Source: Tachypleus tridentatus (lineage: Eukaryota > Arthropoda > Merostomata > Xiphosura > Limulidae). From it: DNA of 64,000 nt. The translations under genes and the position numbers were made by a program. The notes beneath the pieces are model-generated. The model was given only the letters and a program-made list of their open reading frames with translations. It was not told the DNA's origin and did not search any database. Positions 47,342 through 50,900 of this stretch are shown in pieces (the stretch's first letter is position 1; the number at the start of each line of letters is the position of its first letter). Where the stretch lies: the NCBI RefSeq assembly GCF_004210375.1, contig NC_134831.1, positions 41,388,035-41,452,034 on the forward strand. The letters are read 5' to 3'.

Positions 47342-47413
47342 GCAGCCAGTAAACATCAGTAATGTTTTTCCCAAAAATTGGGTTTGAAAACAAGTCTTCA
47401 TCAAACTGGCTGC
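47342..47413 (-). promoter_or_regulatory. SECIS element (form 2) in the thioredoxin reductase 3' UTR
   Basis: On the minus strand a hairpin opens with GCAGCCAGT and closes with ACTGGCTGC (9 perfect pairs). Above an internal loop stand ATGA on the 5' side and TGAT on the 3' side, the non-Watson-Crick quartet of eukaryotic SECIS elements. Twelve bases after ATGA come unpaired AAA, then a CCCAA/TTGGG mini-stem, the form-2 arrangement. Helix II is strong near the apex (TGTTTT/AAAACA) but has a three-base mismatch near the quartet. The element lies about 420 nt after the UGA it would serve. It is expected to recruit SBP2 and the Sec-specific elongation factor (family knowledge). Confidence 0.9.
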
Positions 47414-47825
47414 TTACAGAAACACTTTCATTTTCTCTACCGTCTCCATCCCAGTCTTTCTCCTGTCAGTAGTAGCAGATTAGTTGTTTCTTACATTGGC
47501 ATTGACTGTGACAAGTAAAAAAATATTTTTTTGAAATATTTCAAATTAGATCAACAAAAATCATGTCAGAAAAATGACTAGCTTAATCCATTAACTTCTA
47601 AAGGTTCACACAAATGTGAGACAATAATAACAGTTGTGAGAAGATTAACTCTCATGATATTAACTGGGGTTAACCCTTTTAATGAGAAATGAAGTGGTGT
47701 TAGATACCTGGTAAGGGTATTAAATATTGCAGACAATCAATTATGGGTTAAATAACTCCATCTTCCCAACTTTGTACCAATGTTCTTAGAAAGCATCATT
47801 ATTGACAGAAATTGGGTTGGAAAAT

Positions 47826-47955
47826 TTAACCTCAGCAGCCTGTAACTGTGGGATCTTTTCCAGACCTCTTGCTAATATTCAACTTTACAACTTCCTCAGC
47901 TACAGTGGGATGAATTCCAACAGTTTGCTCTAACAGTTCAATGTTCAGCCCACAC
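47826..47955 (-). CDS. TrxR last coding exon with Sec codon
   Basis: After the acceptor TTCATAG| the exon completes Lys and reads [20 protein letters not shown] + [20 protein letters not shown], then TGA, Gly, TAA. The phase-2 junction with the upstream exon (ALK|CGL) matches the vertebrate protein order. Confidence 0.96.
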
Positions 47956-50900
47956 CTATGAATAAATTGTTTAAAGGCATTACTGATCAATATTTTAAAA
48001 CAATACTTAGTATTAAGTTTGCATTCTATACTCTATTATCAAACCTACTCTTATCACTATTGCAAGATAATTAAAACTTTTAATGCTTTTAGCTACAATC
48101 TGCATTACATTTGGAACTGAAAAATTAGATGACTTAATAATTATTCTCTACATTTATTACAATATAATTTAGCTTTTAACTTGCCACACTGAAAACACAC
48201 CTGGTTTAAAAGTGAGGTCATATCTTGTGGTAATTAAGGAACACCTCATTTTGAATATTAAACTGGTATTTACAATACAAGTATGCAAGGCATGTCATTT
48301 TCTCTTACAAGCACAATTGTAACAATTTACTTTGGAATCTCCTAGAAAAACTACCTTTTCAATTTACCAAGAAGCTGAATCTTCTAGAATAACTTCTAAA
48401 CTTACATAAGACAACCTCTTGAGCCATTTTTATTCCAACAGCAATTGAAAAACTCCTTGATATAACTTTTAGTCAACTTACTTAAGAGCAGCTGAAAAAC
48501 CTTGCATAACTTCCCCAGCATGAGGCCCAGTCAAATGAAGACCTATGACTTTCTGTGGATGCTCTCTTAAACAAACAGCCTATACAAGTAAATAGATTTT
48601 TATCCCACATAAATTACATACTAAAAACACTTCAGAATTATAAGTTAGAACAGTGAAAGAGATGGCACTAATATTGATATAGGATACCACATAGAGTTTT
48701 TTGTTTAATGAATATTATTTTAAGTATTTTGTACTCATTTGAAGCTTTTCTAACACATTCATGACAGAAAATCACCCATATTTTTGTCTCAGTTAAGAAA
48801 CTACTAATAATGAGCCTTGTGAAGAAACAAATTTACATAATTAGATTTATTATGGCAAAATATTATCTTACTATCGACATCTATTGTATACAATTTTAAT
48901 ATTCATTTAATTTTCTAAGTTTTAATGTAATGAAATACTGAAATGTGGTAGGATTTAGTGCATAGGAAAAGAAAGTAATTATTGTAATATTTCACAATCA
49001 GTGCAGATAACATAACTTTGTTCTAGCCTTGTTGGTCAATAGGTTTATATAAACTGTGAGGCACTTAACTTTTGCATTATCAGGAAAGTAGGGTTTTCAT
49101 TAATTGCAGAGTCAAGAATAAACCTACATTGATTCAAAAAATCAACTGTGAACAAGCACTGTAATGATTTACACCATTTACATTACATTTATAAAAGACA
49201 GTTTATATGCTGATCTCTAGCCTCAGTTTACAAATAAGTAGGAACTCTTTTATATACATGCTATGTTCACCATTGGTCCTCAATGAGATTTTAAAGTTGA
49301 ATGGGCAACAATGTCATTTTCACTTAGTAATTAATTAACACTGAAACCTAATTAGGATAGTTTGGTTTGTCTATTTTTTCATTATGGTTCAGTAGCAGAA
49401 CATAAAGATAATGCAAAACTCATGAAAAAACAAAATTCAGCCATTGCAGAGCATGCCACGTCAACTGGACACAGAATAAACTGGGAGAAAACTAGAATCA
49501 TCAACACAGACAAATTTTCCAAAACAAGAAAAATCAAAGTATCATTTCATATTAACACTATTAAACCTTCAATAAACACGGATTCTGGATTAGAAGTGAG
49601 TAACCTGTGGCTACCATTGGTTGAATCTACAGGAAATCTCTCCAATCAGAAATGGTGATAATCCAACCAATTGTAACATGATCTCCACAATCCACCAAGA
49701 CACTATGAAAGACCAACAACACCTTACACACACATACTGACCAGAAGACTAAAGGCAGAAGACTTTCAAAACATTGTCCTCTACACTGGTGTCTCCACAA
49801 AAGGCAGTTGCCATCCATTCTACAGAGTTTGATCATGAATACTCCACCTAAACAATCTATCAAATAATAATTCCTAGATGTTGGATGTAATTAAAATTTT
49901 TTCCCATTTTTGATAAAAGTTTTCTGTGTGTTTTGAGTTATATTACAACAGTGCCAAACACATACCTTTAAGTAGCACTGTGATGCATCCCTCTCTGCTA
50001 AGGTGTACTGCAAAGGTTTATAAAAAGCATGATAAACTTCTAAGTTCTCCATTCCATATTTCTTTAATGCTTTCTCTTCAGATAACCCAACACAAGCATA
50101 CTCCAGGGGTGTAAACACAGTTGTTGCTACCTAAGGTAGAACAGTGAGTTTGAGGTTTGGTAAGCACACTGATGGTAAGTTATCATTTTGATGGTAATGA
50201 ATAACAAAATACATTCATAACACTGAATATACATTTTTTAGTTATTAAAACATAAAACAGGCTTTAACAAAAATTTAAAAAATTACCAAGGCACAAGGTA
50301 TAATAAGGGTTATAAGATGTACCCTGGGTTTTGGAAGTGATTTTAGAATTAAGACCCACAGTAACTCTATCTACCAGTCTTAACCTCCACTTGCTAGTCT
50401 CACATATTAAAGAAAGAAAGAAGCCCCCAGTATAGTAGAAAAAGCCAAAAGCAACAAGTTAATTAGTAGTAAAGTAGGCAAGGTATACCAGTACAACTCC
50501 CAAACTCCACCTATTGTTTTTTATCACAGATTTAAGCTTGCTGTTTCTAACAGTCTTTCCTTTCAATGTTAATCTTTGCATGATGATCACAATGGTGGTT
50601 TTGCATATACACACAAAGTATAACTCTGTATCTCCCTGGTGTCAGAAGTTATCATGAAGAACACTCCTTTCACTTAAACTTAATGTTAAATATTATGCTT
50701 TTAATGTTTACTAATGGAACTTAAAAATAATTTGAGTCTCTGGATAGACTTCATATAATTTGGTCCATCTATTATAACGTAGTAATGGTCAATTATACTC
50801 ATATTAAGAAGCATTATAAGTGAACACTGATAGGGATAACTTTTAAATAACCCAGTGATAGAGATCTTACCCTTTTAGCAAGAGATCCTAGGTTTAAGTC

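What the first reader, a model, noticed from the sequence alone, without database searches (positions are those of the whole stretch)
47342..47960. Selenoprotein thioredoxin reductase with intact Sec codon and form-2 SECIS in an arthropod-type genome
Seen: GGC-TGC-TGA-GGT-TAA at the end of a TrxR frame, and about 420 nt downstream a hairpin with ATGA/TGAT quartet, unpaired AAA, a 9-bp basal stem and an apical mini-stem. Known: insects replaced Sec with Cys in TrxR and many lost the Sec machinery, while vertebrates and several non-insect invertebrates keep it. A default annotation will truncate the protein at UGA.
Basis: partly seen in the sequence, partly recalled or inferred. Interest (0 to 1): 0.7.

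Follow-up and report, generated by a model that had tools for sequence, protein, structure and literature searches.

The report
Horseshoe crab selenocysteine thioredoxin reductase gene
This is an intact-looking animal thioredoxin reductase gene, in what looks like a horseshoe crab genome, in which a stop codon is most likely read as the rare amino acid selenocysteine; that is expected for an arthropod that is not an insect, although the same genome holds a surprisingly large cluster of the matching tRNA genes.

Summary
On the minus strand, 13 joined exons (8 in the window) give 488 residues of a thioredoxin reductase; the only in-frame stop before the final TAA is a TGA (47834-47832) in the tail Gly-Cys-TGA-Gly-TAA. 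The start-codon exon was not sought. The best solved match is TXNRD2 (702 bits); the TGR model gives 679 bits, cut-off 476. A form-2 SECIS-like hairpin (47413-47342) starts 421 nt downstream. Rfam SECIS_1 aligns to it end to end at 23.7 bits, below its curated 35. The assembly holds tRNA-Sec, SEPSECS, EEFSEC, an SBP2-like domain and two SPS2 first exons with TGA. Coagulogen and arthropod hemocyanin matches and assembly size point to Tachypleus tridentatus. Sec-containing TrxR is in print for a centipede, so this is a new member of a known kind. The unexpected part lies outside the window: 29 tRNA-Sec matches over the cut-off in one 0.42-Mb cluster; a 2017 survey says single copy is generally assumed, and tabulates at most four per genome.

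The parts
63963..63982 (-). TrxR exon 6 of the 13 found, a 20-nt microexon coding LVVGGS (exons 1-5 lie beyond the window's right end, at extended coordinates 70349-65305)
   Evidence: exact phase fit between exons 5 and 7, cag before and gt after
62834..62925 (-). TrxR exon 7
   Evidence: tblastn with recalled human TXNRD1, AG/GT borders
59347..59518 (-). TrxR exon 8
56394..56527 (-). TrxR exon 9
51499..51594 (-). TrxR exon 10
49966..50130 (-). TrxR exon 11
48482..48579 (-). TrxR exon 12
47826..47955 (-). TrxR last exon (13), ending GCUG-stop
   Evidence: aligned to TXNRD2 (1zdl) to the last residue
47832..47834 (-). TGA codon, most likely read as selenocysteine
   Evidence: aligned with the tail residue of TXNRD2 that is Cys in 1zdl (that this Cys replaces Sec is recalled)
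47826..47828 (-). TAA, true stop codon
47342..47413 (-). form-2 SECIS-like hairpin in the 3' UTR
   Evidence: Rfam SECIS_1 at 47345-47410, 23.7 bits; 9-bp basal stem, quartet, AAA, mini-stem
47162..47167 (-). candidate poly(A) signal AATAAA after the hairpin
   Evidence: sequence

Best explanation
The window holds most of the gene (8 of the 13 exons found) for a TXNRD2-like, probably mitochondrial, thioredoxin reductase of a horseshoe crab, most likely Tachypleus tridentatus. Shown: an open frame over 13 exons, the GCUG-stop tail, a SECIS-like hairpin 421 nt after the TGA, and genes for most of the Sec machinery in the same assembly. Inferred from what is established for animal selenoproteins (recalled): the 3' UTR hairpin recruits the SBP2-like protein, which brings EEFSEC with Sec-tRNA-Sec to the ribosome, so the penultimate codon UGA is read as selenocysteine. 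The Cys-Sec pair of the tail then takes electrons from the CVNVGC disulfide of the partner subunit and passes them to thioredoxin.
For: AG before 13 of 13 exons and GT after 12 of 12 (the last exon ends the gene), joined without any internal stop but the TGA. The protein aligns to TXNRD2 from residue 5 to the last at 702 bits, above fly TrxR (604) and TXNRD1 (597) (organisms of the entries recalled), and passes TIGR01438 (679 against 476 bits). SECIS: (23.7 bits, full length). Machinery: tRNA-Sec with anticodon TCA (8 of 8 loci scanned), SepSecS exons (7 of 8 scored candidates, one stretch of C7), EEFSEC domain III (E 3.6e-33, 1 of 2 candidates), an SBP2-like RNA-binding domain in two exons (52 and 59% identity, 2 of 10 candidates), and two SPS2 first exons coding GUGCK and GUGYK with TGA. 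A second TrxR on C6 ends GCUG-stop too, and two SelP_N exons are present, one with an in-frame TGA.
Against: SECIS_1 scores below its gathering cut-off (23.7 against 35), and the lowest-energy fold is a different one above the basal stem, though I know the program does not model the non-standard quartet. No transcript, peptide or second horseshoe crab genome was available, so conservation of the hairpin was not tested. PSTK was not searched. The C6 paralogue, with the same tail, shows no convincing SECIS in about 4.5 kb after its tail. The TXNRD2 assignment rests on PDB scores; no tree was made. The genome-wide SECIS_1 search found nothing, but its controls did not ring either.
Confidence: 0.94

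Rival explanations
1. The gene is a TrxR in which UGA now acts as a stop: the protein ends at Gly-Cys and works, if at all, without Sec, and the hairpin is a relic or chance.
For: SECIS_1 is below the gathering score and helix II has three mismatches; the minimum-energy fold differs.
Against: The codons for GCUG and the following TAA are kept; the quartet, AAA, mini-stem and a perfect 9-bp basal stem are all present; Sec machinery and other genes with the expected TGA are in the genome.
Confidence: 0.04
2. Alternative splicing replaces or removes the UGA, giving a Cys or truncated tail in some or all transcripts.
For: Not excluded by genomic sequence alone; the gene has an easily missed 20-nt microexon.
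Against: The last exon runs through TGA and TAA in frame, with homology to TXNRD2 up to the last residue.
Confidence: 0.02

Closest known systems
Mitochondrial thioredoxin reductase TXNRD2 (mouse, PDB 1zdl; organism recalled)
   Same: Homology from residue 5 to the last, CVNVGC redox site, GC-x-G tail; best PDB match.
   Different: Arthropod gene; first coding exon and any targeting peptide not found here; the 1zdl chain carries Cys at the Sec position.
Sec-containing TrxR of non-insect arthropods (centipede Strigamia maritima, PMC4244043)
   Same: TrxR with selenocysteine, a SECIS downstream of each selenoprotein gene, full Sec machinery (passages read).
Fly thioredoxin reductase (PDB 2nvk, 3dgh; organism recalled)
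   Same: Same enzyme family, 604 and 598 bits.
   Different: The fly enzyme has Cys instead of Sec in the tail (recalled), and scores about 100 bits lower than TXNRD2.
Rfam SECIS_1 (RF00031)
   Same: Full-length alignment including quartet and AAA.
   Different: 23.7 bits, below the gathering score of 35.

Membership tests
Sec-containing animal thioredoxin reductase (TXNRD2 type) | FAD/NADPH disulfide reductase of the TrxR/TGR subfamily with CVNVGC site | tested here: met
   TIGR01438 679.1 bits, cut-off 475.85; CVNVGC in exon 3
Sec-containing animal thioredoxin reductase (TXNRD2 type) | C-terminal Gly-Cys-Sec-Gly with in-frame TGA followed by a true stop | tested here: met
   GGC TGC TGA GGT TAA at 47840-47826
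Sec-containing animal thioredoxin reductase (TXNRD2 type) | Intact multi-exon frame | tested here: met
   13 of 13 acceptors AG, 12 of 12 donors GT, no other stop; exon with the start codon not sought
Sec-containing animal thioredoxin reductase (TXNRD2 type) | TXNRD2 rather than TXNRD1 orthology | tested here: inconclusive
   702 against 597 bits in the PDB; no tree made
Sec-containing animal thioredoxin reductase (TXNRD2 type) | Sec is incorporated in the protein | not testable with these tools
   needs peptide or reporter data
Eukaryotic SECIS, form 2 | Basal stem, ATGA...NGAN quartet, unpaired AA(A) about 9-14 nt above the quartet, extra apical mini-stem (definition recalled) | tested here: met
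   helix II has three mismatches near the quartet and is not in the minimum-energy fold
Eukaryotic SECIS, form 2 | Curated covariance-model score (RF00031, 35 bits) | tested here: inconclusive
   23.7 bits: the cut-off is not reached. The model also fails to list the SECIS-like hairpins after both SPS2 genes of this genome, so it may be insensitive here, or those hairpins are not SECIS.
Eukaryotic SECIS, form 2 | Conservation of the fold between species | not tested
   no other animal genome was searched
Sec-decoding organism | tRNA-Sec, SEPSECS, SPS2, EEFSEC, SBP2 | tested here: met
   the SBP2 match rests on two exons and a recalled probe and may be SBP2 or its paralogue
Sec-decoding organism | PSTK | not tested
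Horseshoe crab (Xiphosura) | Coagulogen gene (its restriction to horseshoe crabs is recalled), arthropod hemocyanins, assembly size | tested here: met
   PF02035: four exons in order on C11, 35-100 bits, among 19 matches; PF00372: 25 matches; PF14830: none, but its controls rang nowhere; 2,167,478,450 bases in 205 contigs against 2,167,470,406 bp in 204 scaffolds listed for T. tridentatus CNA0000821 (columns matched by order)

The most novel reading that the evidence does not exclude
The animal that carries this gene has amplified its tRNA-Sec gene, generally assumed to be single-copy, into an array of about 29 near-identical copies in 0.42 Mb, several of them transcribed, so its tRNA-Sec gene dose is well above the numbers tabulated for other eukaryotes in the survey read here. 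If true, it would let one ask whether tRNA-Sec supply limits UGA recoding.
Probability: 0.4. Interest if true: 0.5.

Novelty: new member of a known kind. Interest (0 to 1): 0.25.

Why it matters
The gene adds a well-supported TXNRD2-like selenoprotein gene from a chelicerate, and fits the published view that the great reduction of selenoproteins is mainly an insect affair, with separate losses in some mites. It also warns annotators that the TGA and a 20-nt microexon can easily be mishandled in this gene. The side observation, a large tRNA-Sec array, would matter more if the copies are real and transcribed.

Tried and rejected
A whole-genome search with Rfam SECIS_1 gave nothing; it also rang in none of its 14 control genomes and scored only 150 of 44397 candidates, so it says nothing. 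The window has no Rfam match at gathering thresholds and no tRNA by ARAGORN.

Mollusc origin was considered at first and set aside: no mollusc hemocyanin match (a weak negative since no control rang), arthropod hemocyanins and coagulogen present.

A link between the tRNA-Sec array and a selenoprotein P with many Sec codons was considered. Two SelP_N exons were found, one with a single TGA. I read three frames of one strand of 30 kb there for UGA-rich frames and saw no clear Sec-rich C-terminal exon. This is no gene model and does not exclude one.

SECIS of other Sec genes as controls: SECIS-like hairpins lie about 315 nt after the stop of both SPS2 genes (L058:453, L059:455; best candidates of their 3.5-kb stretches in a loosened scanner), but Rfam does not list them, not even in 161-base stretches. 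For the C6 TrxR the best candidates score only -13.6 and -12.7, and the tail exon of the C13 paralogue was not found in 3 kb. Rfam at E up to 10 listed no SECIS in L034-L036, L056, L057 or L058-L060.

Open frames of the array unit: a 239-aa frame has no Pfam match; a 117-aa frame resembles DNA-binding domains below their cut-offs.

Literature (openly licensed PMC papers only; judged by listed titles and abstract starts unless said otherwise): (thioredoxin reductase, SECIS, selenoprotein, cephalopod) found no paper. Among the listed papers (20 of 191; 20 of 92; 12 of 12; 20 of 69; 4 of 4; 15 of 54) I saw none on a large animal tRNA-Sec array or the horseshoe crab selenoproteome; several of these lists are partial. 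Searches served to find the arthropod and genome papers. PMC5330540: passages and the whole of section 11. PMC4244043, PMC7815833, PMC7210998: passages only; the main texts of the last two have no word starting with 'tRNA' or 'selen'.

Full report
What is there. The minus strand of the window carries a thioredoxin reductase gene. A tblastn search with human TXNRD1 (recalled) found its exons in the window and beyond the window's right end. Joined by reading frame and splice borders they make 13 exons, 8 of them in the window: AG stands before 13 of 13 and GT after 12 of 12 (the last exon ends the gene). The 1469 nt give 488 residues with a single in-frame stop before the terminal TAA, the TGA at 47834-47832. 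One exon is only 20 nt (63982-63963) and was found by its phase and the expected LVVG motif. The exon with the start codon was not sought.

What the protein is. The best match among solved structures is 1zdl, thioredoxin reductase 2, mitochondrial (702 bits, residues 5-488), ahead of fly TrxR 2nvk (604) and TXNRD1 1h6v (597) (organisms recalled). The NCBI model for thioredoxin and glutathione reductases gives 679 bits, cut-off 476; the glutathione reductase models listed stay below their cut-offs. The query carried Cys in place of Sec. The homology runs through the tail PTVTGC-x-G to the last residue, so the TGA stands where TXNRD2 has its Sec (recalled; Cys in this crystallised chain). TXNRD2-like is read from scores, not from a tree.

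The SECIS. Rfam SECIS_1 aligns over its full length with 23.7 bits and E = 0.044 for 701 bases and 4227 families, about 1e-5 for this one family (my division); the gathering score of 35 is not reached. The folding energy of the 86-nt segment beats 200 of 200 shuffles (z -4.0), but the minimum-energy structure is not the SECIS fold above the basal stem; the SECIS fold is 1.8 kcal/mol higher, without any bonus for the non-standard quartet. In a scanner written for this purpose it ranks first of 120 candidates in the window (71 on plus, 49 on minus), by a small margin; the score was devised after seeing the hairpin. Given its place in the 3' UTR of a gene with a GCUG tail, and an AATAAA beyond it (47167), I take it as a real SECIS.

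The machinery. In the same assembly: tRNA-Sec, 29 of 53 matches over the Rfam cut-off, anticodon TCA in 8 of 8 loci given to ARAGORN; SepSecS, 7 of 8 scored candidates, all in one 11-kb stretch of C7; EEFSEC domain III, E 3.6e-33; an SBP2-like RNA-binding domain in two exons of C13; and SPS at C1 and C8 (18 matches, a few more on C1 and C10), whose two first exons both have TGA in LKG-U-G-(C/Y)-K. PSTK was not searched. A second, TXNRD1-like gene on C6 ends in KGCUG-stop, though I found no convincing SECIS in about 4.5 kb after it. Taken together Sec decoding is very probably alive in this animal.

Whose genome. Four coagulogen exons lie in order on C11, arthropod hemocyanin has 25 matches and mollusc hemocyanin none (no control rang). 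The genome has 2,167,478,450 bases in 205 contigs; a table in PMC7815833 lists 2,167,470,406 bp and 204 scaffolds for Tachypleus tridentatus, CNA0000821 (passage, columns matched by order). I take it as that species.

Known or new. PMC4244043 (passages) reports TrxR and GPx with Sec, SECIS elements and the whole machinery in a centipede, and concludes that a massive reduction occurred in insects; PMC5330540 (passages) adds two mites that lost Sec. A horseshoe crab gene of this kind is what one would predict. Searches for horseshoe crab with selenoprotein (12 papers listed) and for Limulus with selenoprotein and selenocysteine (4 listed) showed no title or abstract start on this subject. It is a new member of a known kind.

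The side observation. A search with the 87-nt tRNA-Sec gave 40 matches (40 of 52 candidates scored), all on C9 between 155.30 and 155.73 Mb: 20 identical, 9 at 97-99% (one lacks the first base, two have one base fewer), 11 truncated at 87-90%; two more truncated ones were seen in fetched loci. The copies lie on both strands. In the 8 of 29 copies whose 3-kb loci I compared, four neighbours (L003-L006) are 99.8-100% identical, while L001, L002, L007 and L008 differ from them and from each other by about 1.7-3.3%. So at least five are distinct duplicates; the near-identical four may be very recent or an assembly effect. The gene ends in G after the acceptor stem, the base that PMC5330540 calls essential. 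That paper says single copy is generally assumed, tabulates at most four copies (top one plus compensated ones) per genome, mentions eleven non-identical predictions in a diatom, and warns that copies identical in the flanks too may be artefacts (section 11). At least one variant carries stem mismatches and may be dead. Arrays are not unique to tRNA-Sec here: 23 rows on C8 belong to groups spaced by about 3 kb, of which the 2 copies checked are tRNA-Ser(TGA). Expression is unknown.

Verdict. Observation confirmed, interpretation supported, interest modest; the tRNA-Sec array deserves its own look.

Noticed in passing
G000:C9:155303978-155722817 (L001-L008, L018, L019, L022): 29 tRNA-Sec matches over the Rfam cut-off (20 identical, 9 at 97-99% to the query) on both strands in 0.42 Mb; a 2017 survey tabulates at most four per genome (plus eleven predictions in one diatom).
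   Followed up: partly
G000:C9, e.g. L018, L022, L037, L039: Between the tRNA-Sec genes lie at least 13 truncated copies (11, two more) that match only positions 2-80 and so lack the 3' acceptor strand; the ones seen have upstream sequence resembling that of the intact ones.
   Followed up: partly
G000:C8:69770832-69812564 (L020): Genes in an array with a spacing of about 2.98 kb; the two copies checked are tRNA-Ser(TGA). Further rows lie at 42.5 and 45.8 Mb of C8.
   Followed up: no
L054 and L055 (C1:20437301, C8:4566318); L058, L059: Two SPS2 first exons, both with an in-frame TGA; the C8 copy has Tyr instead of Cys two residues after Sec (GUGYK). Both genes have SECIS-like hairpins about 315 nt after the stop that Rfam does not list.
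   Followed up: partly
L057, L060 (C6:122757000-122762000, minus): TXNRD1-like paralogue ending KGCUG-stop, without a convincing SECIS in about 4.5 kb after its tail.
   Followed up: partly
window 24465-41612, strand +: Frames at 24465-24875, 28444-28902 and 41112-41612 that look like a matrix metalloproteinase gene (PRCGIPDL propeptide motif, catalytic part, hemopexin-like part); recognised from memory, no family search made.
   Followed up: no
window 1-3700: A long repeat tract that is open in several frames on both strands.
   Followed up: no
window 37511-36888 and 42879-42418, strand -: Frames that look like transposase remnants; recognised from memory.
   Followed up: no
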